A stretch of DNA of 64,000 nucleotides from Actinotalea endophytica (lineage in GTDB: Bacteria; Actinomycetota; Actinomycetes; Actinomycetales; Cellulomonadaceae), in NCBI RefSeq assembly GCF_025717005.1, contig NZ_JAOVZU010000006.1, positions 16,925 through 80,924 on the forward strand, given 5' to 3'. The position numbers were made by a program, and so were the translations under genes. Every line of letters begins with the position of its first letter. The stretch's first letter is position 1. The notes under the pieces are model-generated. The model saw only the letters and a list, made by a program, of their open reading frames with translations, was not told the origin of the DNA and searched no databases. Shown piece after piece: positions 47,875 through 59,368 of this stretch.

Positions 47875-47910
47875 GCACAGGTCCCGCACAGGCGCACAGG
47901 TCGCGCACAG
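47875..47910 (+). promoter_or_regulatory. Two CACAG-N6-CACAG direct repeats ahead of the export operon
   Basis: CACAG occurs at 47876, 47887, 47895 and 47906, giving two pairs spaced 11 bases apart (one helical turn) inside two near-identical 17-base units. This is the layout expected for an OmpR-family dimer. A -10-like TACGTC lies at 47919-47924. The same 11-base-spaced motif lies upstream of the response regulator at 59353-59368. Confidence 0.6.
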
Positions 47911-47971
47911 TGCGGTGCTACGTCCGGCTCAGGGGAGGTTCGTACGTTCCCGTCGGATCGAAGGGAGCAGG

Positions 47972-49195
47972 ATGCTGCGACGGTTGCGGCGCCCCTGGGC
48001 GCTCGGCACGGCTGTGGTGCTGGTGGTGGTCGCCGGGACGGCGTTGTGGTGGTTCGTCCTGCACGGCAAGGCGGCCGCGGCGTCGGCCCCCGAGTCGACG
48101 ACGCAGTCGGTCGCCGCCTCGACGACCACGTTGGAGAAGTCGGTCAGCGGGAGCGGCACGATCGCGCCCACGGTGCAGGAGGACGTCAGCTTCGCGGTCA
48201 GCGGCACCGTGCTCAGCGTCGACGCCGCGGCCGGGGACACGGTCGAGGAGGGCCAGCAGCTCGCGACGGTCGACACGCTGCAGCTCAACGCGGACCTGCT
48301 CTCGGCGAAGGCGACGCTGGCCACGGCCGAGGCGTCGCTCGCCGACCTCGAGGACTCCGACGACGGGTCGGATGCGGCAGACGCGCAGATCGCGGCCGCC
48401 TCGGCACAGGTGGACGTCGCGCAGGCAGCGGTCGACACGGCGCAGGACGCCATGGACGACGCGACGCTCGTCGCGCCGGTCGCGGGTCTGGTGACCGAGG
48501 TGAACCTCACCGTCGGTGAGGCCGTGAGCGGCGGCGGGTCGAGCTCGATGGGCGGAGCCTCGACCACCGGGTCGACCGGGTCCACCGGGACCTCCTCGTC
48601 GGCGCAGTTCGTCATCGTCGGCACCGACTCGTGGGACGTCGACATCAGCGTGGACGACGCCGACGTGGCGCTCATCGCGGTCGGCGACCAGGCCGAGCTC
48701 ACCGTCGACGGCGCTGACGGGACGGTGTTCGGCACCGTCTCCGAGATCGGCCTGCTGTCGACCAGCTCGTCGGGCGTCGCGGCCTACCCGGTGACGATCG
48801 CGATCACGGGCAGCCCGGACGGGGTGCACGACGGTGTCTCCGCCGACGTCGCGATCGTGTACGAGCGGCGCACCGACGTGCTCACCGTGCCGTCCGCCGC
48901 GGTACGCACGGTCGACGGGCAGTCGGTCGTGATGCAGGCCGGTTCCGACGGCTCCGAGGTCCAGACGCCGGTGACCGTCGGCGAGACCGTCGGTGACGTC
49001 ACCGAGATCACGTCGGGGCTCAGCGAGGGCGACGAGGTGCTCGTCACGGTGGTCACCCAGACCCAGCAGTCCGACCAGTCCGACCAGTCGGGCACGGACC
49101 AGCGCGGGCAGATGCCGACCGACTTCCCGAGCGGCGGCTTCGACCCGTCGCAGATGCAGATGCCGGGCGGGCAGCAGGGCGGCACCAATGGCTGA
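47972..49195 (+). CDS. Membrane-fusion (periplasmic adaptor-like) protein, MacA-type
   Basis: A 407-residue HlyD-family adaptor. An N-terminal anchor helix (about 10-28) is followed by a barrel/lipoyl half (VSGTVLSVDAAAGDTVEEGQ), a short alpha hairpin (about 105-155) and the return lipoyl half (DATLVAPVAGLVTEVNLTVG). A beta-barrel (ADVALIAVGDQAELTVDG) completes the core, and the C-terminal tail is Met/Gly/Gln-rich (PSQMQMPGGQQGG). In Gram-positive bacteria such proteins accompany MacB-type ABC exporters. ATG at 47972 with AAGGGAGCAGG. Its end overlaps the ATPase gene by eight bases. Confidence 0.88.
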   Translation: MLRRLRRPWALGTAVVLVVVAGTALWWFVLHGKAAAASAPESTTQSVAASTTTLEKSVSGSGTIAPTVQEDVSFAVSGTVLSVDAAAGDTVEEGQQLATVDTLQLNADLLSAKATLATAEASLADLEDSDDGSDAADAQIAAASAQVDVAQAAVDTAQDAMDDATLVAPVAGLVTEVNLTVGEAVSGGGSSSMGGASTTGSTGSTGTSSSAQFVIVGTDSWDVDISVDDADVALIAVGDQAELTVDGADGTVFGTVSEIGLLSTSSSGVAAYPVTIAITGSPDGVHDGVSADVAIVYERRTDVLTVPSAAVRTVDGQSVVMQAGSDGSEVQTPVTVGETVGDVTEITSGLSEGDEVLVTVVTQTQQSDQSDQSGTDQRGQMPTDFPSGGFDPSQMQMPGGQQGGTNG

Positions 49196-50024
49196 GGCGC
49201 TGGTCGAGGCGGAGCCGGTCGCGGTCGACGCCGCGGCACCCGTCATCGACCTGCAGGGAGCCGGCAAGACCTACCGGACCGGGTCGCTCGAGTTCGAGGC
49301 GCTCAAGGACGTGGACCTGCGCATCGAGGAGGGCGAGTACGTCGCGGTGATGGGGCCGTCCGGGTCCGGCAAGTCGACGCTGATGAACCTGTTGGGATGC
49401 CTGGACACGCTGACGGTCGGGAGCTACCGGCTGGCGGGGGAGGACGTGAACGAGCTCGACGAGGTCGAGCTCGCCGCGATCCGCAACCGGCGGATCGGGT
49501 TCGTGTTCCAGCAGTTCCACCTGCTGCCGTCGCTGTCGGCGTGGCGCAACGTCGAGCTCCCGCTGCTCTACGGCCACGTGCCGGCCGCCGATCGGCGCGC
49601 CAGGGCGGAGGCCGCGCTGGAGCGGGTGGGGCTCGCGGACAAGTTCGCGAACCGTCCCGGCGAGATGTCCGGCGGCCAGCAGCAACGGGTCGCGGTCGCG
49701 CGGGCGCTGGTCGGCGAGCCGGCGCTGCTGCTCGCCGACGAGCCCACCGGCAACCTGGACTCCGCGTCCACCAAGGACGTGCTCGCGCTGCTCGACGAGC
49801 TGCACGCACAGGGGCGGACGATCGTGCTCATCACGCACGAGCTCGAGGTCGCCGAGCACGCGCGCCGCGTGGTGCGGGTGCTCGACGGGCGGATCCAGTC
49901 CGACACCGTGTCGAGCCGGCACGCGAACTCGGCACGATCGGCCGGGGCGGCCGGGGCGGCCGGTGCCGCCGGGGGCCGGGCCCCTGCCGGGGCGCCCGGA
50001 TCGATGCAGGCGGGTGCCCGGTGA
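49188..50024 (+). CDS. MacB-type ABC transporter ATPase
   Basis: A 278-residue ATPase of the LolD/MacB class. Walker A is MGPSGSGKSTLMNLLG, the Q-loop VFQQFHLLP, the signature MSGGQQQRVAVARAL, Walker B LLLADEPTGNLDS, and the switch His is in LITHELEVAEHA. A Gly/Ala-rich tail of about 30 residues extends past the usual end. ATG at 49188. It pairs with the permease directly downstream (GTGA overlap). Confidence 0.93.
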   Translation: MAEALVEAEPVAVDAAAPVIDLQGAGKTYRTGSLEFEALKDVDLRIEEGEYVAVMGPSGSGKSTLMNLLGCLDTLTVGSYRLAGEDVNELDEVELAAIRNRRIGFVFQQFHLLPSLSAWRNVELPLLYGHVPAADRRARAEAALERVGLADKFANRPGEMSGGQQQRVAVARALVGEPALLLADEPTGNLDSASTKDVLALLDELHAQGRTIVLITHELEVAEHARRVVRVLDGRIQSDTVSSRHANSARSAGAAGAAGAAGGRAPAGAPGSMQAGAR

Positions 50025-51253
50025 GCTGGACCGAGACGCTGCGCACCGGCCTCGCGGCCATCCGCGCGCACAGCCTGCGGTCGACCCTCACCGTGCTCGG
50101 CATCCTGATCGGCATCGCCGCGGTGATCCTCACGGTGGGTCTCGGTCTGGGCACGCAGAAGGACGTGTCGGAGCAGATCAGCTCGTTGGGGTCGGACCTG
50201 CTGATCGTGACGCCGGGGTCGAGCACGTCGAGCGAGGGGACGCGGGGCGGCTTCGGTACCCGGGCGACGCTGACCAGGTCGGACGCGGAGGCGCTCGCGT
50301 CCGAGGTCAACGCGCCGGACGTCGCGGGGGTCGCGCCGGAGAAGTCGAGCCAGCTGTCCCTGGAGACCTCGGAGACCAACTGGACCACGACCGTGGTCGG
50401 CACGACGGCGGACTGGCCCTCGGTGCGGGCCCGGACGCTCGCGTCGGGTGAGTTCTTCACCGACGAGGACGAGGCGACCGGGGCTGCGGTCGTGGTGCTC
50501 GGGTCCTCGACCGCGACCGAGCTGTTCGGCAGCACGGACGTGGTGGGGCAGACCGTCACGATGTCCGACCTCACGTTCACGGTGGTCGGGGTGCTCGCCG
50601 ACGCCGGCGCGGACTCCTCGACGGACCTGGACGACCTCGCGGTGATCCCGCTGTCGACCGCGAGCGACCAGGTGATCGGCGGGCGTGACCGCAACGCCCT
50701 CACCACGGTGTACGTGCAGGCGGCGTCGACGGACCAGCTGTCCGCCGCCTACCAGGAGGTCGAGAGCCTGCTGCTGAACCTGCACGGCATCACGTCGGCC
50801 GACAGCGCCGACTTCACGATCAACAGCCAGGACGCGCTGGTCAGCACCGCGACCGCGGTCTACCGGACCCTGACCGTGCTGCTCACCGGGATCGCGGCGC
50901 TGTCCCTGCTGGTCGGCGGGATCGGCGTGATGAACATCATGCTCGTCTCGGTGACCGAGCGGACCAGGGAGATCGGCCTGCGCAAGGCGCTCGGTGCGCC
51001 GCCGTGGGCGATCCGCCGCCAGTTCCTGATCGAGGCCTCGGTGCTCGGGCTGGCCGGCGGTGTGCTCGGGGCGGTGCTGGGGATCCTCGGCGCGCGGGTG
51101 CTCCCGGACCTCCTCGGCACATCGATCGTCGTCTCCGGGCTGGCGGTCGTGGGATCCCTGGTGGTCGCGGTGGGGATCGGTCTGGTGTTCGGGGTCTACC
51201 CGGCGACGCGGGCGGCGCGGCTCGCGCCGATCGACGCGCTGCGCAGCGAGTGA
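50021..51253 (+). CDS. MacB/FtsX-type ABC permease
   Basis: A 410-residue permease with an N-terminal helix (STLTVLGILIGIAAVILTVG), a large extracytoplasmic MacB-PCD domain (about 50-275) and three C-terminal helices. The family motif GGIGVMNIMLVSVTERTREI and the coupling stretch GLRKALGAPPWAIRRQFLIE are clear, and it ends PIDALRSE as is typical. It probably exports a peptide, lipid or drug, or works as a mechanotransmitter. GTG at 50021 overlaps the ATPase stop. Confidence 0.93.
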   Translation: MSWTETLRTGLAAIRAHSLRSTLTVLGILIGIAAVILTVGLGLGTQKDVSEQISSLGSDLLIVTPGSSTSSEGTRGGFGTRATLTRSDAEALASEVNAPDVAGVAPEKSSQLSLETSETNWTTTVVGTTADWPSVRARTLASGEFFTDEDEATGAAVVVLGSSTATELFGSTDVVGQTVTMSDLTFTVVGVLADAGADSSTDLDDLAVIPLSTASDQVIGGRDRNALTTVYVQAASTDQLSAAYQEVESLLLNLHGITSADSADFTINSQDALVSTATAVYRTLTVLLTGIAALSLLVGGIGVMNIMLVSVTERTREIGLRKALGAPPWAIRRQFLIEASVLGLAGGVLGAVLGILGARVLPDLLGTSIVVSGLAVVGSLVVAVGIGLVFGVYPATRAARLAPIDALRSE

Positions 51254-51264
51254 GGACGGAGACG

Positions 51265-52191
51265 ATGGGACGACGGTTGGTGCGCGGTTCGGCCGCGCTG
51301 GCAGGGGGGCTGGGCGTCGCGCTCGTGCTCGCCGGGTGCGGCGGGGGCTCGACCACGGAGGCGGCGGCCACGGCCGCGGCGGTGACGGCCGGCGACGGCT
51401 CGCAGGACACGTCCGGCGGCGTGCAGGACGGCTCGGCGGCCGGCTCCGCGGATGGTCGTGGTGGGGTGTCGGGCCTGATCGCGGCGGTGACCGGGACGAC
51501 CATGCAGGTGCAGTCCGACGTGCAGACCGCGGTGACCTGGTCGGACGACACGACCATCACGCAGGAGGTCAGCACGGACCTGTCCGCGGTGACCGTGGGC
51601 TCGTGCGTGGTGGTGATCGAGTCGAGCGCCGACACCTCCTCCGACACCTCGAGCGGCGGGGTCACGAGCGGTGACACGGCCGGAACCGCCGGGCCTGCGT
51701 CGAGCGTCGTGGTGAGCGAGCCGGTCGACGGCGAGTGCACGGGCTTCGCCGGTGCGGGCGCCGGCGGGATGCCCGGTGGCCAGATGGCCGGTGCGCCGAC
51801 CGACGGGGCGACGGGCATGCCGAGCGGCATGCCGACCGACATGCCGAGCGGTGGGCCGACGGACCTGCCGAGCGGTGGCTCGACGGACCTGCCGTCGGGG
51901 ATGCCGACCGGTGGCTCGCGGGGCTTCGGCGCGATGGTGGCCGGCACCGTGACGGCCGTGGACGACGCGGGGATCACGGTCGACCAGGACGGCACCACGA
52001 GCACCGTGACGATCGACGACGCGACCACCTACACGACGACGCAGACCGTGGACTCCTCCGCGATCTCGGTCGGGCTGTGCGTGAGCGCGCGCGGCGAGAG
52101 TGACGACCGCGGCGGGATGACGGCCACGTCGCTGAGCCTGAGCGATGCGGTGGACGGTGCGTGCACGAGCGTCGGAGGCCGAGGTGCCTGA
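51265..52191 (+). CDS. Lipoprotein with two DUF5666-like modules and Met/Pro/Gly-rich linker
   Basis: A 308-residue lipoprotein; the lipobox is LVLAGCGG. Two similar beta-rich modules are recognisable: about 70-125 (GLIAAVTGTTMQVQSDVQTA) and about 225-285 (VAGTVTAVDDAGITVDQDGT), both DUF5666-like with one Cys each. Between them is a repeat-rich linker of MPSG/MPTD/LPSGG units containing many Met. ATG at 51265 with GAGGACGGA. It sits between permease and second adaptor in the operon, so it is probably an accessory surface component. Confidence 0.8.
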   Translation: MGRRLVRGSAALAGGLGVALVLAGCGGGSTTEAAATAAAVTAGDGSQDTSGGVQDGSAAGSADGRGGVSGLIAAVTGTTMQVQSDVQTAVTWSDDTTITQEVSTDLSAVTVGSCVVVIESSADTSSDTSSGGVTSGDTAGTAGPASSVVVSEPVDGECTGFAGAGAGGMPGGQMAGAPTDGATGMPSGMPTDMPSGGPTDLPSGGSTDLPSGMPTGGSRGFGAMVAGTVTAVDDAGITVDQDGTTSTVTIDDATTYTTTQTVDSSAISVGLCVSARGESDDRGGMTATSLSLSDAVDGACTSVGGRGA

Positions 52192-54358
52192 GGTGATCGG
52201 CGAGGTGCCGCCGCGGCGCGGACGCACCGGTCGCGCGGCACGGGGCGGTTCCGCCGGTGGTGGCGTGGACGCGAGCGGCTCCGCTCCGGGCGGTTCCGCC
52301 GGTGCCGCCGGTGGTACCGGTGGGCGCGGTGGTTCACGTGGCGGTGGTGCCCGGGGTAGCGCCGGCCGGCGTGGCCGCCGGGCGCTGATCGCGGGCGGCA
52401 CGGCGGTCGTGGTGGCGCTGGTCGGGGGCGGGGTCGCGCTGGCTCACGGTCAGGACAGCGCCGGGCGGTACCGCACTGCGACCGCGGCGCTCGGCTCGGT
52501 GATCCAGACGATCGATGCGACCGGGACGCTCGAGTCGGCCGATCGGGTGGATGCCGCGTTCTCCGTGGCGGGCACGGTCGGGACAGTGGATGTCGCCGTC
52601 GGCGACACCGTCACGGCCGGCCAGCAGCTCGCGTCGCTGGACCGGACCTCGCTGGAGGACGCGGTCGACGAGGCAGAGTCCCGGCTCGCGGACGCCGAGC
52701 AGCGACTCGAGGACGACCTGGATGCGCAGACCAGCAGCTCGTCGAGCTCGAGCTCGTCGAGCTCGAGCGGATCCACCGGGTCGAGCTCGACCGGGTCCAC
52801 CCCGAGCGGCGGATCGTCGGACACGGGTTCGACGGACACGGGCTCCTCGGGCACCGGGAGCACCGGCTCGAGCGTGGACGAGCAGGCCCTCGCCGCGGCG
52901 GTGGCGGCCGTTCACGAAGCCCAGTCCGCGCTGCTCGCCCAGCACGATGCGGCGCAGCAGGCCCTGGCCACCAGCCGGACGGCGCTCGACGCGGCGCAGA
53001 CGACGTGCGCACCGGTGCTCGGCGACGGGACCGGCGACGGCACCGGCACGGATGACGGCACCGGCACCGACGACGGCACGGACGACGGCACGGGCACGGA
53101 CGACGGCACCGGCACCGATGACGGCACGGGCACGGATGACGGCACGGGCACGGACGACGGCACCGGCACCGACGACGGCACGGGCACGGACGACGGCACC
53201 GGCACCGACGACGGCACCGGCACGGACGACGCCGCGCTGGCCGCCTGCACGACCGCCCTTGCGGCTGTGCTGGCCGCGCAGGAGAGCGTCGACGCCGCGC
53301 AGTCGGCGCTGATGGACCGCGCCGACGACCTCGATCGGGCGGTCGCTGCGGTGCTGGCGCTGTTCTCGAGCGACGGCGCCGGGCCTGGTGGCAGCACCGG
53401 CACGGCCTCTGGTGACGACGCGGGCACCTCGGGCACGACGCCGACGGACTCGAGCTCCAGCGACTCGGGCACGACGGGCGCGGGCACGACCGGCACGGGC
53501 ACGACTGACTCGGGCACGACGGACTCGAGCACGTCGACCGTGTCGAGCACGGTGCTCACCGTCGGGGGTTCGAGCCAGAGCGGCGCGACGTCCTCGGTCC
53601 CGACCGCCGCCGACATCCTGGCGGACCAGGCCGAGATCGACGCGGCGGAGGCCGACGTGGCGATCGCGCAGGACGCGCTCGACCGCGACGTCCTGACGAC
53701 CCCGATCGCGGGCACCGTCGCCCAGGTCACGATGGCCGTGGGCGACTCCGTCACCGCCTCGTCGACCTCTGCGGTCGTGACGGTGATCGGTGACACGGGC
53801 TTCCTGGTGACGATCTCGGTGGGTGCGACCGACATCGACCTCGTCGAGGTCGGTCAGGAGGCGACGGTGACCACGTCCAGCACCGATGAGACGCTCGAGG
53901 CGACCGTCACGAGCATCGGCGTGCTGAACGAGTCCACGACGGCGGAACCCGCCTACTCGGTCGTCCTGGCGATCGCCGGGACCGACGCTCCGCTCTTCAA
54001 CGGTGGATCCGCGGAGGTGAGCATCACCGTGGGCGCGGGGGACGAGACCGTGACGGTGCCGACGTCGGCGGTGCACGTCGACGGTTCGACGAGCACGGTC
54101 GACCTGCTCGAGGACGGCGTGGTGACCGAGACCGAGGTGACCACGGGCGCGGTCGGGACGGAGCTCACCGAGATCCGGTCGGGTCTGAGCGTGGGTGACG
54201 TCGTCGTGCTCGCCGATCTCGACGAGCCGATGGAGTCGAGCAGCACGGAGACGTCGTCGGGGCTCACCGGGCTCTCGGACAGCTCCAGCTCCGACGTGTC
54301 GACCGTGCCGGGTGGCGGCATGGCGCCCGGCGGGATGGGAGGACCTCCCGGCGGGTGA
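52184..54358 (+). CDS. Second membrane-fusion protein with long Ser- and Asp/Gly-rich inserts
   Basis: A 724-residue HlyD-type adaptor. A disordered Gly/Arg-rich start and a transmembrane helix (about 68-88) lead to lipoyl half FSVAGTVGTVDVAVGDTVTA. The usual alpha hairpin is interrupted by three low-complexity tracts: poly-Ser/Gly/Thr (about 183-227), GTGTDD repeats (about 280-350), and Gly/Thr/Ser/Asp-rich (about 400-470). The second lipoyl half (DVLTTPIAGTVAQVTMAVGD), a barrel, and a GGGMAPGGMGG tail follow. The GTG at 52184 has GGAGGCCGAG and overlaps the lipoprotein gene by eight bases. Confidence 0.85.
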   Translation: MPEVIGEVPPRRGRTGRAARGGSAGGGVDASGSAPGGSAGAAGGTGGRGGSRGGGARGSAGRRGRRALIAGGTAVVVALVGGGVALAHGQDSAGRYRTATAALGSVIQTIDATGTLESADRVDAAFSVAGTVGTVDVAVGDTVTAGQQLASLDRTSLEDAVDEAESRLADAEQRLEDDLDAQTSSSSSSSSSSSSGSTGSSSTGSTPSGGSSDTGSTDTGSSGTGSTGSSVDEQALAAAVAAVHEAQSALLAQHDAAQQALATSRTALDAAQTTCAPVLGDGTGDGTGTDDGTGTDDGTDDGTGTDDGTGTDDGTGTDDGTGTDDGTGTDDGTGTDDGTGTDDGTGTDDAALAACTTALAAVLAAQESVDAAQSALMDRADDLDRAVAAVLALFSSDGAGPGGSTGTASGDDAGTSGTTPTDSSSSDSGTTGAGTTGTGTTDSGTTDSSTSTVSSTVLTVGGSSQSGATSSVPTAADILADQAEIDAAEADVAIAQDALDRDVLTTPIAGTVAQVTMAVGDSVTASSTSAVVTVIGDTGFLVTISVGATDIDLVEVGQEATVTTSSTDETLEATVTSIGVLNESTTAEPAYSVVLAIAGTDAPLFNGGSAEVSITVGAGDETVTVPTSAVHVDGSTSTVDLLEDGVVTETEVTTGAVGTELTEIRSGLSVGDVVVLADLDEPMESSSTETSSGLTGLSDSSSSDVSTVPGGGMAPGGMGGPPGG
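53021..53230 (+). repeat. 18-bp-period tandem repeat encoding GTGTDD
   Basis: About a dozen imperfect copies of a GGCACSGGCACSGAYGAC-type 18-base unit, with one shortened copy, lie in frame within the second adaptor gene. They encode (GTGTDD)n. Replication slippage here would alter hairpin length without a frameshift. Confidence 0.85.
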
Positions 54359-54479
54359 CGGTCCGGTCGCGTGAGGCGCCAGTCCTCACAGGGTGCGTCC
54401 AGGTTGCCAGCAGGGGCGCACCAGGCTGGGCCGCGATCCTGGGTCAGGTACACCTGTACGCGACTCGATGAGGACGTCA

Positions 54480-55010
54480 TGCCCGAGAACGACCCCGCCC
54501 CCGACGACAAGCCGACGCAGCCCATCGTCGAGCCGGACGGGGCCCCAGCGGACGCACCGGCCGCGACCGCGGCCGCCACCCCTGCCCAGGCGGCAGCCGC
54601 GGCCGGGTCGTCGACCTCCCCGCCGGTTCCTCCCGGTGCTCCCGACCCCCGGGCCCACCGGTGCTCCCGACCCACGTGCGCACTACCCGTACGCCGGTGG
54701 CCCTCCGGCCCAACCGGGCATGGTGCCGTCCGTCGCCACGCCCCGACCGATGGCGTGGTGGATCCCGGTGGTCGCGGTCTTCGGCGGTCTGCTGCTGCTC
54801 GGCATCGGTGTGGCCGTCGGCTTCGGTCTCGGCTTCGTCGTGGCGGACCATCGCGCGGACGAGATCGTCCAGCACGAGAGCGTGGACCGGGACGGGCTCG
54901 GCGGCCTCGACCGCGACCAGGGCGGCTTCGGAACCCCGCACCGCGGCGGTGACACGGGGACGGACGGCAGCGGCACCAGTGACGATGGCGTGACCGACGG
55001 CAACACCTGA
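54480..55010 (+). pseudogene. Frameshifted single-pass membrane protein gene
   Basis: The ATG at 54480 (GAGGACGTC upstream) begins a Pro/Ala-rich N-terminus (MPENDPAPDDKPTQPIVEPD) that stays in frame to about 54650. The plausible continuation (YPYAGGPPAQPGMVPS, then a transmembrane helix VVAVFGGLLLLGIGVAVGFG and an Asp/Gly-rich tail) lies in the next frame and ends at 55010. The break falls in a 25-base imperfect repeat (54635 and 54660) containing CCCCC at 54646-54650. Removing one C restores GAPDPGPTGAPDPRAH. It may be a sequencing error, phase variation or a decayed gene. Confidence 0.7.
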
Positions 55011-55056
55011 GCCACCCGTGACGATGGCGTGACCGACGGCAACACCTGAGCCGCCC
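54979..55056 (+). repeat. 39-bp tandem duplication across a stop codon
   Basis: Two copies (54979-55017 and 55018-55056) differ at one base. The first contains the stop codon of the frameshifted gene; the second lies in the intergenic gap. Confidence 0.85.
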
Positions 55057-55064
55057 GGGCGCGA

Positions 55065-56480
55065 TCAGCGCCGGATCACCGTGCCGTCGCGGCCGGTGAA
55101 CTCCCACGCTCCCTCATCCCGGTGGATGCGCAGCGAGCGCCGGTGGACGAGGTCGTGGTGGTGGTAGCAGAGCAGGATCCCGTTCCGGGGTTCGGTGTCT
55201 CCGCCGTCACGCGTCCAGTGCGCCACGTGGTGCACCTCGCCGAGGTGCGACGGTGCCGTGCACCCGGGGTAGGCGCAGTGACCGTCGCGGGCCACGACCG
55301 CGACGCGGGTCGGGCCGGAGAAGATCCGCTTGGTGCGCCCGACGTCGAGGACCTCGCCGTCGGGCGAGAAGAGGATCCGGTTCAGCTCACCGTCGCACGC
55401 CAACCGGTCCAGGACGTCGCGCGGCACGGGCGTGGCGTCGGTGAAGAACGCGCCGCGCCGCAGGTCGTCGGGGCTGAAGCGAGGACCCGCGCCGCCGCCG
55501 GCGCCGAAGCGAGGACCCGCGGCGCCGCCTGCGCCGAAGCCGGCGTCCCGGCCGAGCGCGTCTCCCGCACCGCCGCCCCACCGCCGGGAGGCGCGGTCGA
55601 CGAGCGCGGTCAGCGTGCCGTGGTCCACGTGCACCACGACCCCGGGCCGGGTCACGCGTCCGGTGGGCAGAGGATGGTGCTCGAGCACGGTGCGGGCGAG
55701 ATCGGCGAGGGCCTGGGCGCGCCGCTGGCCCGCACTGCGCGGGTCACCCGCAGCGGGGACCGGGCTCACCGCGGCGAGGGCGGCGGTCAGCTGCTGGCCG
55801 TGCTCGATGGTGAGCTGACCGTCGACGCGGTACCCGTAGGGGAGCCGAGCCAGCGTGAGGTGCTCGCGCTCGGACGCCTCGCGGTAGCCGTGCTCGTCGG
55901 CCGCCGGATCGGCGCGATCGGACCAGACCCGGACGACTGCGCGGAGGTCGTCGACGCCGAGCCGGGCGGCCTGGGTGACGAGGAACCCCTCGTTGCAGGC
56001 GTGCTCCGGGTCGGCCAGGACCTCCCGGCGGGCGTCGGTGCTCGCTGCGGCGGCGATGACGCCGGCCGCCTCTGCGGAGATCGTGCCGGCTCGCGCTGCG
56101 GCGGTGGTTGCCGGCAGGTGGTCGCTGAGCGCCCGCCCGACCCGGACCCGCCGCTTGGCGGCCGGCACCGACATGCCCCAGCGGCGAGCGACCCACCGCG
56201 GGAAGGTGGCTTCGTCGCCCAGCGCCCACCACCCCTCACGCTCGAGGCGGGGCAGGGCCGTCGTGACGCCGGCGGACGCTCGTTCAGCCACCAGGTGGAG
56301 TGCGCCGACGACCTCGGCCATCGCCTCACCTGTCAGGTCCTCGAGGTCGACGCCGAGCAGCGAGTCGAGATCGGCGAACAGCGCCGCGACCGCATCGGCG
56401 AGGCGCGGCGGCAGGGCAGATCGCCGCGCAGGCGCGTCGCTCTCGCCCGCGACCTCCGGCGCCAGTGCGATCCGCGACAC
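55065..56480 (-). CDS. DUF222 / HNH endonuclease signature protein
   Basis: A 471-residue protein of the actinobacterial DUF222-HNH (13E12-like) family. The helical DUF222 domain occupies about 20-270. A Gly-rich linker has a repeat (GAGGAAGPRF, GAGGGAGPRF). The HNH finger is C-terminal (CAYPGC, HLGEVHHVAHW, NGILLCYHHHDLVH) with all metal and catalytic residues present. The family is multicopy and of uncertain role. The GTG at 56480 has a GAGGGGGG Shine-Dalgarno. It lies between the export operon and the two-component genes on the opposite strand to the former. Confidence 0.88.
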   Translation of the reverse strand: MSRIALAPEVAGESDAPARRSALPPRLADAVAALFADLDSLLGVDLEDLTGEAMAEVVGALHLVAERASAGVTTALPRLEREGWWALGDEATFPRWVARRWGMSVPAAKRRVRVGRALSDHLPATTAAARAGTISAEAAGVIAAAASTDARREVLADPEHACNEGFLVTQAARLGVDDLRAVVRVWSDRADPAADEHGYREASEREHLTLARLPYGYRVDGQLTIEHGQQLTAALAAVSPVPAAGDPRSAGQRRAQALADLARTVLEHHPLPTGRVTRPGVVVHVDHGTLTALVDRASRRWGGGAGDALGRDAGFGAGGAAGPRFGAGGGAGPRFSPDDLRRGAFFTDATPVPRDVLDRLACDGELNRILFSPDGEVLDVGRTKRIFSGPTRVAVVARDGHCAYPGCTAPSHLGEVHHVAHWTRDGGDTEPRNGILLCYHHHDLVHRRSLRIHRDEGAWEFTGRDGTVIRR

Positions 56481-56693
56481 GATCCCCCCCTCGACGCCTC
56501 CTATTCCATCACCGACCTCTGACAAAGAATGTCGCGAGGCCATTCCGGCCGGCGTCGAAGGAAATGCACAGCAGAATCGCTTCGGTGTTTTCCACAGGAC
56601 GGGCGGACCTGCCGGTGATCGCCCTGGATCAGGCGGACCGACGCCCCGGCGGGTGATCCAGCAGAGCGCTCGTGCAGGGGCGCGGCCCGCCGA

Positions 56694-58541
56694 TCACGAA
56701 CGCGTGCGCGCCGGCCGTTGCGTCGACTCTCCGGAGGCAGGCTCTCCGGAGGCAGGCTCTCCGGAGGCAGGCTCGCCGGTCGCGTTCGCGCCGGAGGCCA
56801 CGTCGCCGGCGGCGGGCTCCGCAGGCGCGGGGTCCGCGGTGCTCCCGCCAGGTGCCGCGGTGCCGGCGCTCCTGCCATGCTCCGCCGCGGACCGCGCCGA
56901 CGTCGGCTCGTCCGCCCGTGCGCCCTCGCCCACGGCGGGCAGGCGCACGGTGAACGTGGTCGCCCCGGGCGTCCCGTCGACCTCGATCTGACCGCCGTGC
57001 GCGGCGACCACCGCGTGCACGATGGCCAGGCCGAGCCCGGTCGACCCGGCGCCCGCGTCGCGCCCCGCCATCGGCGTGCGCGCTGCGTCGCCCCGGGTGA
57101 ACCGCTGGAAGAGGCGGGGCAGCAGCTCCGGAGCGATGCCGGGGCCGTCGTCGCAGACCCGCACCACGACCTGGTCGCCCTCGACCCGCACCGACGTCGT
57201 CACGGTCGTCCCGGGCGGCGTGTGCACCCGAGCGTTCGCGAGCAGGTTCACCAGCACCTGGCGCAACCGGTGGTCGTCGCCGAGCACGAGCGCCGGCTCC
57301 GGGTCGGCGAAGTCCAGGTCCTCGGTCACGGCTTCCGGCACGGTGCCGTCGTCCGTCGTGGTCGCCGACGCGCCGTCGTCCGTCGGTCCGCCCGCGGTGT
57401 CCTCGAGCACGTCGCCGTCGCCCAGGTCCAGCCGCCACACGTGGTCCCGGCCCGCGACGTGCGCATCGGCCACGGCGTCCACCGCGAGGCCCACCATGTC
57501 GACCTCGTCGCGGTCGAGCGCCCGCCCGGCGTCGAGGCGCGCGAGCAGCAGCAGGTCCTCGACCAAGGTGGTCATCCGCCGGGACTCCGACTCGACGCGC
57601 TCCATGGCGCGCACGGCGTCGTCCGGCAGCGGTTCGGGAAGTCGCTGGACCAGCTCGGCGTAGCCGCGGATCGAGGCGAGCGGTGTGCGCAGCTCGTGGC
57701 TCGCGTCGGCGACGAACTGGCGCACCTGCATCTCGGACTCGTGGCGCGCGGCCAGCGCCGACTCCACGTGGCCGAGGAGCCGGTTGAGCGCGACGCCGAC
57801 CTGACCGACCTCGGTCGAGGTGTCGGTGTCCTGCTCGGGCACCCGGTCCAGCGTCACGGCGCCGCGGTCCAGGGGCTGCTCGGAGACCCGGGTCGCGGTC
57901 GCGGCCACCCGCTCGAGCGGCTCCAGCTCACGGCGCACCAGCACGGTGCCGGCGAGCGCGGCGATCAGCAGCCCGGCCAGCGCGATCGTGGCCTCGGTGA
58001 GCAGGTACGTGTCGACGGTGGTCGAGATGTCGGTCATCGACAGACCGGTGATCACGGTGCCGTCCCGGTTGTCGAACGCGATCACGCGCCACTGCCCGAG
58101 GTCGCCCAGCGAGACGGTCTGCACGCCGCTCGAGGGCGTCACGTCGAGCAGGGTCGCCTGCTGCTCCGCGTCGAGCTCGTGCACCGTGCCGGTCTGGTCG
58201 AGGTAGCCGGACTGCACGTCGGTGCCGCGCACCGCCACGGTCAGCGTCCCGGCGCCCTGGCCGAGCGCCACCAGGCCCACCGGAGGACTGCCGTCGCCGT
58301 TCGGCGGTGTCCCGGTCGAGCCGTCGGGCGGCACGACCCCCGGGAGCGCGCTCTCCGCCTTCGTCGCGCGGTCGGCCGACTGGACCAGACGCTGGTCGAG
58401 CTGGGCCACCAGGCTGCTGCGCAGGGCGAACGTCGAGATCGCCGCCATCGTCGCAGCGACCACGGCCACCGCGCCGAGCACGACGAGCACCAGACGTCGC
58501 CGCAGCGGTGCCCGTCGGGACGGCCCGATCGAGATCCTCAT
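56694..58541 (-). CDS. Sensor histidine kinase
   Basis: A 615-residue kinase with TM1 (about 17-37), an extracytoplasmic sensor of about 140 residues, and TM2 (AGLLIAALAGTVLV). HAMP follows, then the H-box FVADASHELRTPLASIRGYA, N-box VLVNLLANARVHTPPG, G1 CDDGPGIAPEL and G2 GSTGLGLAIVHAVV. An acidic insert (about 425-460) and a 65-residue Ala/Glu/Ser tail with SGEPA repeats are extra. ATG at 58541, 10 bases after the response regulator stop, so co-transcribed. Confidence 0.92.
   Translation of the reverse strand: MRISIGPSRRAPLRRRLVLVVLGAVAVVAATMAAISTFALRSSLVAQLDQRLVQSADRATKAESALPGVVPPDGSTGTPPNGDGSPPVGLVALGQGAGTLTVAVRGTDVQSGYLDQTGTVHELDAEQQATLLDVTPSSGVQTVSLGDLGQWRVIAFDNRDGTVITGLSMTDISTTVDTYLLTEATIALAGLLIAALAGTVLVRRELEPLERVAATATRVSEQPLDRGAVTLDRVPEQDTDTSTEVGQVGVALNRLLGHVESALAARHESEMQVRQFVADASHELRTPLASIRGYAELVQRLPEPLPDDAVRAMERVESESRRMTTLVEDLLLLARLDAGRALDRDEVDMVGLAVDAVADAHVAGRDHVWRLDLGDGDVLEDTAGGPTDDGASATTTDDGTVPEAVTEDLDFADPEPALVLGDDHRLRQVLVNLLANARVHTPPGTTVTTSVRVEGDQVVVRVCDDGPGIAPELLPRLFQRFTRGDAARTPMAGRDAGAGSTGLGLAIVHAVVAAHGGQIEVDGTPGATTFTVRLPAVGEGARADEPTSARSAAEHGRSAGTAAPGGSTADPAPAEPAAGDVASGANATGEPASGEPASGEPASGESTQRPARTRS
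56728..56775 (-). repeat. 15-bp tandem repeat at the kinase C-terminus
   Basis: Three near-identical copies of a 15-base unit (CTCTCCGGAGGCAGG on the plus strand) encode SGEPA repeats in the kinase tail, in frame. Confidence 0.8.
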
Positions 58542-58551
58542 CCGGCCGCTG

Positions 58552-59316
58552 TCACCCTTCGGTGCCGGGCGCGGGCTTGAGCACGTAGCCCACGCCGCGC
58601 AGCGTGTGCAGCATCGGCTCGCGACCCTTGTCGATCTTGCGACGCAGGTAGGAGACGTACAGCTCGACGATGTTGGCCTGGCCGCCGAAGTCGTACTGCC
58701 ACACGCGGTCCAGGATCTGTGCCTTCGACAGCACCCGCTTGGGGTTGCGCATGAAGTAGCGGAGCAGCTCGAACTCGGTCGCCGTGAGGTGGATGTCGTC
58801 CCCGGCGCGCGAGACCTCGTGGGAGTCCTCGTCCAGCACCAGGTCGCCGACCCGCAGCACGGCGTCGTCACGCGCGGCGGTCGCCCCGGCCCGGCGCAGC
58901 AGCGAGCGCAGCCGCGCGACGACCTCCTCGAGCGAGAACGGCTTGGTCACGTAGTCGTCGCCGCCGGCGGTCAGACCCGCGACCCGGTCCTCGACCGCGT
59001 CCTTGGCGGTGAGGAACAGCACGGGCACGTACGGGTTGGTCGAGCGCACCCGGCGCAGCACCTCGAGGCCGTCGAGGTCCGGCAGCATGATGTCGAGCAG
59101 GATCACGTCCGGCTCCCACGCCTTGGCGGCCTTCACCGCGCCGAAGCCGGTCGTCGCGGTCTGCACCTCGAAGCCTTCGTAGCGCAGGGCGGTGGAGAGC
59201 AGCTCTCCGAGGTTCGGCTCGTCGTCGACGACGAGCGCCCGGACCGGGCTGCCGTCGGCGCGGGTGAGGTGGTCGCGCGTGCGGGTCTGGGGGGTCGTCG
59301 TCGTCATGCGTCCCAT
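58552..59316 (-). CDS. OmpR-family response regulator
   Basis: A 254-residue regulator. The receiver has the acidic pair VVDDEP, phospho-acceptor Asp75 in VILLDIMLPD, Thr103 in FLTAKD and Lys125 in VTKPFS. The winged-helix DNA-binding domain contains LTATEFELLRYFMRNPKRVL and VELYVSYLRRKIDKG. The ATG at 59316 has GGCGGAGG upstream. It lies 5' of the kinase gene. Two 11-base-spaced CACAG half-sites lie 37-52 bases upstream, matching those ahead of the export operon. Confidence 0.93.
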   Translation of the reverse strand: MGRMTTTTPQTRTRDHLTRADGSPVRALVVDDEPNLGELLSTALRYEGFEVQTATTGFGAVKAAKAWEPDVILLDIMLPDLDGLEVLRRVRSTNPYVPVLFLTAKDAVEDRVAGLTAGGDDYVTKPFSLEEVVARLRSLLRRAGATAARDDAVLRVGDLVLDEDSHEVSRAGDDIHLTATEFELLRYFMRNPKRVLSKAQILDRVWQYDFGGQANIVELYVSYLRRKIDKGREPMLHTLRGVGYVLKPAPGTEG

Positions 59317-59352
59317 CGTCACGCCTCCGCCTCGGCAACGGCTGGGGAGTTC

Positions 59353-59368
59353 CTGTGAGAAGTCTGTG
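59353..59368 (-). promoter_or_regulatory. CACAG-N6-CACAG direct repeat upstream of the response regulator
   Basis: On the minus strand CACAG occurs twice 11 bases apart (plus-strand CTGTG at 59353 and 59364). It has the same spacing as the two pairs at 47876-47910. This suggests autoregulation and shared control of the export operon. Confidence 0.5.

What the first reader, a model, noticed from the sequence alone, without database searches (positions are those of the whole stretch)
47875..59368. Shared 11-bp-spaced CACAG repeats predict that the two-component system controls the export operon and itself
CACAG-N6-CACAG occurs twice at 47876-47910, upstream of the MacAB-like operon, and once (minus strand) at 59353-59368, upstream of the response regulator. 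One-turn spacing of direct half-sites is typical of OmpR-family binding. At an assumed 73% GC I estimate about 0.1 chance occurrences of the pair in 64 kb on both strands, against three found at the two relevant promoters.
Basis: partly seen in the sequence, partly recalled or inferred. Interest (0 to 1): 0.75.

Follow-up and report, generated by a model that had tools for sequence, protein, structure and literature searches.

The report
PhoP-type regulator box controlling export operon
A repeated DNA word in front of a bacterial export operon and of a two-gene sensor system is very probably the docking site of that system's own regulator, kept at a fixed distance from the promoter in many related bacteria; it is a well-supported new example of a known kind of gene switch.

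Summary
In detail: CACAG-N6-CACAG occurs three times in the window, 0.12 expected. The two macA copies look like one tandem duplication. Genome-wide the motif is not over-abundant (8 exact, reversed control 14), but 5 of 8 lie within 33 kb around this two-component system, and all 8 precede a gene by my gene calls. The regulator is closest, among solved structures, to mycobacterial PhoP, whose published site TCACAGC-N4-TCACAGC has the same core and spacing. The box recurs before the orthologous regulator in 15 of 15 genomes and 75 of 80 named loci, and before macA in 5 of 5, own genome included. Promoters share a geometry: 11-bp-phased half-sites, then a -10-like element at a fixed offset, seen at 25 of 69 sites in genomes with the regulator and 3 of 46 without. 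The box also links DUF4956-VTC and CotH genes. Binding is unproven; a second PhoP-like paralog may read similar sites. Ordinary in kind, solid, useful.

The parts
47876..47891 (+). distal box of the macA promoter, CACAGGTCCCGCACAG
   Evidence: its 19-bp unit is identical with the next at 15 of 19 bases
47895..47910 (+). proximal box of the macA promoter, CACAGGTCGCGCACAG; single equivalent boxes precede macA in four relatives
47928..47932 (+). phased further half-site CTCAG, 33 bp after the start of the proximal box
47943..47948 (+). predicted -10 element TACGTT at box positions 49-54, the same offset as in macA promoters of G001, G015, G017 and G022
47972..49195 (+). macA-like membrane fusion protein (HlyD_3, HlyD_D23)
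49188..50024 (+). ABC transporter ATPase (MacB-like ATPase)
50021..51253 (+). permease, MacB_PCD and FtsX domains
51265..52191 (+). repeat-rich protein with lipoprotein-like N-terminus by eye (PT repeat match only), same strand as macAB
52145..54358 (+). second HlyD-type fusion protein (start uncertain; longest ORF given)
56694..58526 (-). histidine kinase (HisKA, HATPase_c, HAMP below cut-off); start approximate
58552..59307 (-). response regulator (Response_reg, Trans_reg_C), closest to PhoP among solved structures
59315..59320 (-). predicted -10-like element GACGAT at box positions 49-54; the predicted transcription start falls on or next to the ATG at 59307 (leaderless)
59331..59335 (-). 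degenerate fourth half-site CCGAG
59342..59346 (-). third half-site CCCAG, 11 bp after the second
59353..59368 (-). box of the response-regulator promoter, CACAGACTTCTCACAG

Best explanation
The repeats are operators of the response regulator encoded at 58552-59307. The regulator binds as head-to-tail subunits, one per 11-bp step (CACAG-N6-CACAG, extended at many promoters by weaker third and fourth half-sites), so that the bound array ends over the -35 region and spacer next to a -10 element at fixed distance. From there it would activate its own operon (probably leaderless) and the macAB-type export operon at 47972 onwards. In this genome the same box marks further targets outside the window, most credibly DUF4956-VTC and the unlinked CotH gene. 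Shown by sequence: the boxes, their conservation, the fixed geometry, the co-occurrence with the regulator. Inferred: binding by this protein, activation rather than repression, and an envelope or surface role.
For: Regulator 280 bits to M. tuberculosis PhoP structures, next family PrrA 197. PhoP reads TCACAGC-N4-TCACAGC as a tandem dimer, and three- and four-motif DNA binds more tightly. The PhoP residues said to touch bases (Asn212, Val213, Glu215, Ser216, Tyr217, Tyr220) are N, I, E, L, Y, Y here. Box in the regulator's own promoter: 15 of 15 genomes with an ortholog of at least 64% identity, own included (14 exact), against 0 exact and 2 one-mismatch among 35 other PhoP-like loci read; 28 exact plus 47 one-mismatch of 80 named loci, about 0.02 expected per window. 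In those 80 loci (1.48 Mb) spacing N6 occurs 88 times, spacings N2-N15 other than N6 at most 5 each (N0 21, N1 22), 29 anagrams of the half-site at most 16, the reversed one 0; inverted and everted versions 10 and 6, each place counted on both strands. macA homologs: 5 of 5 regulator-bearing genomes with an exact box and TAnnnT at the same offset. DUF4956 (G034 counted as bearing): 8 of 9 with the regulator (at most one mismatch), 1 of 6 without; CotH 3 of 3 and 0 of 1. -10-like letters: A50 in 40 and T54 in 45 of 56 regulator promoters; both in 18 of 39 target promoters, mean 1.2 per offset, next highest 6. Sites fetched by motif alone: 25 of 69 in 12 bearing genomes, 3 of 46 in 13 others, p 0.0003; without regulator promoters 16 of 57 and 3 of 46, p 0.005 (the offset had been read off overlapping promoters first).
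Against: No binding or expression data. The motif is not over-abundant in the genome. A second PhoP-like regulator (C17:247399-248100) is slightly closer to mycobacterial PhoP (303 bits, against 280), and most paralogs keep PhoP's Ser216, which the window's clade has changed to Leu. G018, where only the paralog type was found, has boxes before DUF4153 and a dioxygenase gene, the latter with a triple repeat and a -10-like element at the same offset. G028 has an exact box before a weak macA-like fragment match though no ortholog of at least 64% was found. DUF4153 boxes do not follow the regulator (4 of 8 with, 3 of 8 without) and most VTT genes lack them (3 of 14 with, 0 of 8 without). 21 of 39 target promoters do not have A50/T54, nor do 44 of 69 sites in bearing genomes. 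G034 carries a clade member whose own promoter has no same-strand box.
Confidence: 0.8

Rival explanations
1. The paralogous PhoP-like regulator (C17:247399-248100), not the window's regulator, is the main reader of these boxes, or both share them.
For: Paralog 303 bits to PhoP structures, window regulator 280. The DNA-reading helix of most paralogs keeps the E, S, Y and Y of PhoP, and 7 of the 35 other rows also the N (one of the 7 is G034's clade member). G018 without the ortholog has well-formed boxes.
Against: The box sits in the promoter of the window-type regulator in 15 of 15 genomes and 75 of 80 named loci, but exactly in none of 35 other PhoP-like loci read. 28 of those 35 have replaced the Asn212 equivalent (S, G, A, once H). 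Five of eight sites cluster around the window's system. DUF4956 boxes follow the window-type regulator.
Confidence: 0.13
2. The regulator binds these sites but represses: the array over the -35 region blocks polymerase.
For: Third and fourth half-sites lie over the -35 region and spacer.
Against: Layout usual for activator-dependent promoters (recalled, PhoB type): good -10 at a fixed distance behind a phased array. The macA -10 is TAnnnT in 5 of 5 genomes.
Confidence: 0.12
3. Chance matches or a compositional repeat.
For: Genome-wide count below the reversed control. Two of three window copies are a tandem duplication.
Against: Spacing and sequence specificity in 80 loci, conservation before regulator and macA, fixed -10 offset.
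Confidence: 0.02
4. Site of another factor type, such as a CRP-like dimer reading TGTGA-N6-TCACA.
For: The half-site resembles half of a CRP site (recalled).
Against: Direct repeats 88, inverted 10, everted 6 in the 80 loci. Binding by a two-fold symmetric dimer would give inverted repeats.
Confidence: 0.02

Closest known systems
PhoP of Mycobacterium tuberculosis and its box TCACAGC-N4-TCACAGC (PMC4832192: abstract, passages and section 13 read)
   Same: Same half-site core CACAG, same 11-bp period, tandem direct repeats including triples, nearest relative among solved structures, four of six base-touching residues identical
   Different: This regulator forms a group apart from the paralog type found in most relatives; two of six base-touching residues differ; outer letters of the 7-mer are not constant; its predicted targets are an exporter and surface-related genes
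TcrXY of M. tuberculosis (PMC10883919: passages read)
   Same: An autoregulated actinobacterial two-component system; relation of the protein to this regulator is recalled only
   Different: The passages describe a 7-bp mirror repeat in its own promoter and no obvious consensus motif from a genome-wide screen; orthology was not tested here
MacAB-type ABC exporters
   Same: HlyD-type fusion protein, ABC ATPase and MacB_PCD/FtsX permease in a row on one strand
   Different: Fusion protein far below NCBIfam's MacA cut-off (58 bits against 342); actinobacterial; a second fusion protein follows
CotH, poly-phosphate polymerase, DUF4956 accessory genes of Gram-positive Pel clusters (PMC7112168: passages read)
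   Same: The same three families; here the box ties DUF4956-VTC and an unlinked CotH gene together
   Different: No Pel cluster was looked for here; the genes lie on two contigs

Membership tests
OmpR/PhoB-family response regulator with PhoP-type box | receiver domain plus C-terminal winged helix (Trans_reg_C) | tested here: met
OmpR/PhoB-family response regulator with PhoP-type box | direct repeat with 11-bp period and CACAG core | tested here: met
   outer letters of the published TCACAGC 7-mer are not constant
OmpR/PhoB-family response regulator with PhoP-type box | base-contacting residues of PhoP helix alpha8 | tested here: inconclusive
   4 of 6 identical, 1 conservative (V to I), 1 changed (S to L)
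OmpR/PhoB-family response regulator with PhoP-type box | DNA binding at the box | not testable with these tools
   needs EMSA or footprint
PhoP proper (same lineage as M. tuberculosis PhoP) | closest PhoP relative in its genome | tested here: not met
   paralog C17:247399-248100 scores higher (303 bits, against 280); bit scores only, PhoP was not in the tree
TcrX lineage | orthology with TcrX | not tested
   no TcrX sequence was obtained; the link is recalled
MacAB exporter | MacB_PCD plus FtsX permease, ABC ATPase, HlyD fusion protein | tested here: met
MacA equivalog (NCBIfam PRK11578) | score over curated cut-off 342 | tested here: not met
   58.4 bits
NCBIfam named response regulators (MtrA, PhoB, CseB and others) | score over curated cut-off | tested here: not met
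   best 25 of 101 matching families were shown, none over its cut-off

The most novel reading that the evidence does not exclude
One uncharacterised actinomycete-wide two-component lineage, perhaps that of mycobacterial TcrXY for which no consensus site has been reported, uses an extended array of up to four 11-bp-phased CACAG half-sites at one fixed distance from a -10 element as its common promoter plan, and with it runs a surface regulon (MacAB-type exporter, DUF4956-VTC, CotH, GT2/GtrA glycosyltransferases) whose known common thread in other Gram-positives is exopolysaccharide accessory genes.
Probability: 0.3. Interest if true: 0.65.

Novelty: new member of a known kind. Interest (0 to 1): 0.5.

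Why it matters
It gives a widely kept actinomycete two-component system, for which I found no published site, a testable binding site, promoter plan and short target list, and places families of poorly known function (DUF4956, VTC, CotH) under one switch. If the lineage proves to include TcrX, it would offer a candidate site where a published screen found none.

Tried and rejected
Genome-wide over-abundance as evidence: rejected; exact count 8 against reversed control 14, 132 against 219 with up to one mismatch; counts in relatives are no clearer.

DUF4153, VTT and the GH18 gene as secure targets: not adopted; DUF4153 boxes occur with and without the regulator and most VTT genes lack them; GH18 was not followed in relatives.

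My rough site classifier (coding, same strand, opposite) separated regulator-bearing from other genomes only moderately (51 of 69 'same' against 26 of 46) and called few sites coding; I rely on the -10 offset test instead. NCBIfam gave no name to the regulator. Paper searches for a published regulon of this system found none in the held library, by their listings; most subscription papers are not in it, and PMC9019756 (PhoP of Actinosynnema, which holds the letters TCACAGC) was seen as a listing only.

Dropped or unread rows: 50 of 56 PhoP-like matches were read. Motif sites were fetched for 12 regulator-bearing genomes (own included, G034 counted as bearing; G029, G031, G035 and G037 not fetched) and 13 others (2 of 8 sites of G024 not fetched; order-level genomes without the regulator not fetched). 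Of 95 regulator promoters (15 plus 80), 57 were given to and 56 counted; left out were near-duplicates, mostly Streptomyces, the 5 loci without a box, and one row too short. The 39 target promoters were picked by me from loci with a box before a gene and include one-mismatch boxes, both macA boxes and two of G018. DUF4153: 16 of 17 matches, VTT: 22 of 28 matches (one per genome) were given. Of the proteins listed, Pfam was run on 29 of 32 from bearing genomes and 21 of 24 distinct ones from the others.
Full report
Observation. The two macA copies are adjacent 19-bp units with 15 of 19 bases the same, so they count as one event. In the whole genome (4.25 Mb, 20 contigs) there are 8 exact matches, while the reversed control has 14; abundance alone proves nothing. 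Placement does: five of the eight lie in one 33.4-kb stretch, C17:64800-98195, that holds this two-component system (approximation 1e-6; 4.75e-5 by simulation if the macA pair counts once), and by my gene calls all eight stand upstream of a gene and point at it. Start codons were chosen by me where the longest ORF ran on upstream, and one minus-strand ORF call overlaps the VTT site.

Surroundings. The box precedes macA (47972-49195, HlyD family), followed by an ABC ATPase, a MacB_PCD/FtsX permease, a repeat-rich protein and a second HlyD-type protein. The other box precedes the response regulator (58552-59307, minus) with its histidine kinase (56694-58526, minus). The remaining genomic sites precede DUF4153 (L009:16073), DUF4956 (L009:19229) with a VTC-domain gene next (L010:2897), a CotH kinase gene on another contig (L012:3621-4961, minus), a VTT/DedA gene (L011:5057) and a GH18 chitinase-like gene (L013:5194). 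CotH, poly-phosphate polymerase and DUF4956 genes are neighbours in Gram-positive Pel clusters (PMC7112168, passages read); that one box joins them here, although they lie on two contigs, is independent support for its meaning.

The regulator. Among solved structures it is closest to M. tuberculosis PhoP (280 bits), then PrrA (197). PhoP binds direct repeats of TCACAGC with a 4-bp spacer as a tandem dimer, and three- and four-motif DNA binds better (PMC4832192, abstract, passages and section 13 read). Of six residues that the paper lists as touching bases, four are identical here, one is conservative and one differs. The genome has a second PhoP-like regulator at C17:247399-248100 that scores slightly higher against PhoP (303 bits). 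In a quick tree of 50 such proteins the window's regulator and its orthologs form a group of 17 rows with SH-aLRT 100, which also takes in G034's 59% relative and a long-branched second copy of G031.

Conservation. In 39 genomes (own included), 15 carry an ortholog of at least 64% identity, and all 15 have the box in the regulator's own promoter, 14 exactly; of 35 other PhoP-like loci read, none has an exact box and 2 have a one-mismatch hit. In 80 named loci, from Cellulomonas, Oerskovia, Actinomyces, Knoellia, Streptomyces and others, 28 have an exact box, 47 a one-mismatch box and 5 none, with 0.02 expected per window; a few of the one-mismatch hits lie at odd distances (L137, L186). The Streptomyces rows are closely related; by genus it is 14 of 16 in Cellulomonas, 33 of 36 in Streptomyces and every row of the others. 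In the 1.48 Mb of those loci the spacing N6 occurs 88 times, in 64 of the 80 loci; spacings N2 to N15 other than N6 occur at most 5 times each, N0 and N1 21 and 22 times (at least partly a compressed box before Streptomyces GT2-like genes), 29 anagram repeats at most 16 times, the reversed one never. Inverted and everted arrangements occur 10 and 6 times, each place counted on both strands, against a CRP-like site.

Targets. macA homologs: 5 of 5 genomes with the regulator (own included) have an exact box; a weak fragment match in G028 has one too without an ortholog found. In those five genomes macA lies within about 11 kb of the regulator. DUF4956: box (at most one mismatch) in 8 of 9 with the regulator, G034 counted as bearing, and 1 of 6 without; in G004, G011 and G014 it is the regulator's divergent neighbour. 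CotH: 3 of 3 with, 0 of 1 without. DUF4153: 4 of 8 with, 3 of 8 without. VTT: 3 of 14 with, 0 of 8 without. The box also precedes GT2/GtrA genes in G007 and G015 (Pfam) and, by my reading of the protein starts alone, GT2-like genes in Cellulomonas and Streptomyces loci and GT39-like genes in Knoellia-type loci. Single cases in regulator-bearing genomes are Cthe_2159, ferric-reductase-like, NAGPA, HtrA-like and dioxygenase genes; others look unrelated to each other.

Geometry. Aligned on the first half-site, 56 regulator promoters show half-sites at 1-5 and 12-16, a third with A26 (44 of 56) and G27 (50 of 56), a trace of a fourth (A37 40 of 56), and a -10-like element with A50 (40 of 56) and T54 (45 of 56), the ATG following at about 61-63, which suggests a leaderless transcript. 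In 39 target promoters A50 with T54 occurs in 18, where the mean over offsets 20-84 is 1.2 and the next highest is 6; strict TAnnnT at that offset occurs 7 times, at any other at most once. For macA it is TAnnnT in 5 of 5 genomes; in G000, G001 and G017 the DUF4956 promoter shows TAGA(A/C)C at that offset if counted from a weaker half-site one step upstream. In the window the elements are TACGTT at 47943-47948 and GACGAT at 59320-59315. With sites fetched by the motif alone, 25 of 69 in 12 regulator-bearing genomes have the -10-like letters at that offset and 3 of 46 in 13 others (p 0.0003); without regulator promoters 16 of 57 and 3 of 46 (p 0.005). The offset had been read off promoters that overlap this set, so the test is not fully independent. 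The -10 reading is by position and letters only; no start site was mapped.

Mechanism. The plan fits a head-to-tail array of regulator ending beside the -10 and contacting polymerase: positive autoregulation plus activation of the exporter. The signal and the exporter's cargo are unknown; an envelope or surface role is a guess from the target families.

Against. No experiment; the paralog may share sites, as G018 suggests, and most paralogs keep a PhoP base-touching serine that the window's clade has lost; about half the target promoters lack the -10 letters at the common offset; DUF4153 and VTT are poor members; G034's clade member lacks a same-strand box in its own promoter.

Novelty. The kind of switch is known. 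A published regulon or box for this lineage was not found in searches of the held library. TcrXY of M. tuberculosis is autoregulated, and its authors report no obvious consensus motif for its regulon (PMC10883919, passages read); whether the present lineage is TcrX's is recalled, not tested.

Noticed in passing
G000:C17:94980-98195 and C19:83725 (L009, L010, L012): Three of the five exact boxes outside the window precede DUF4153, DUF4956-VTC and an unlinked CotH gene.
   Followed up: yes
G000:C17:247399-248100 (L093): Second PhoP-like response regulator, slightly closer to mycobacterial PhoP than the window's own; no box within one mismatch in its promoter.
   Followed up: partly
L205, L217, L221, L239, L257: CACAG(G/C)TTTCCCACAG precedes class II ribonucleotide reductase-like genes (Pfam run on L217 and L257) in genomes with and without the regulator; probably a different element that happens to fit the motif.
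   Followed up: no
L158-L160, L166, L168, L172, L174, L184, L192 and similar: Streptomyces GT2-like genes about 1.6 to 2 kb downstream of the regulator carry a compressed box CACAGGCACA(G/C)CACAG.
   Followed up: partly
52145-54358: The second HlyD-type protein holds a long acidic TDDGTG repeat in its middle part.
   Followed up: no
55065-56543: DUF222/HNH endonuclease gene lies between the export operon and the histidine kinase.
   Followed up: no
L276, L278 (G018): A genome without the ortholog has a triple box before a dioxygenase gene and a box before DUF4153.
   Followed up: partly
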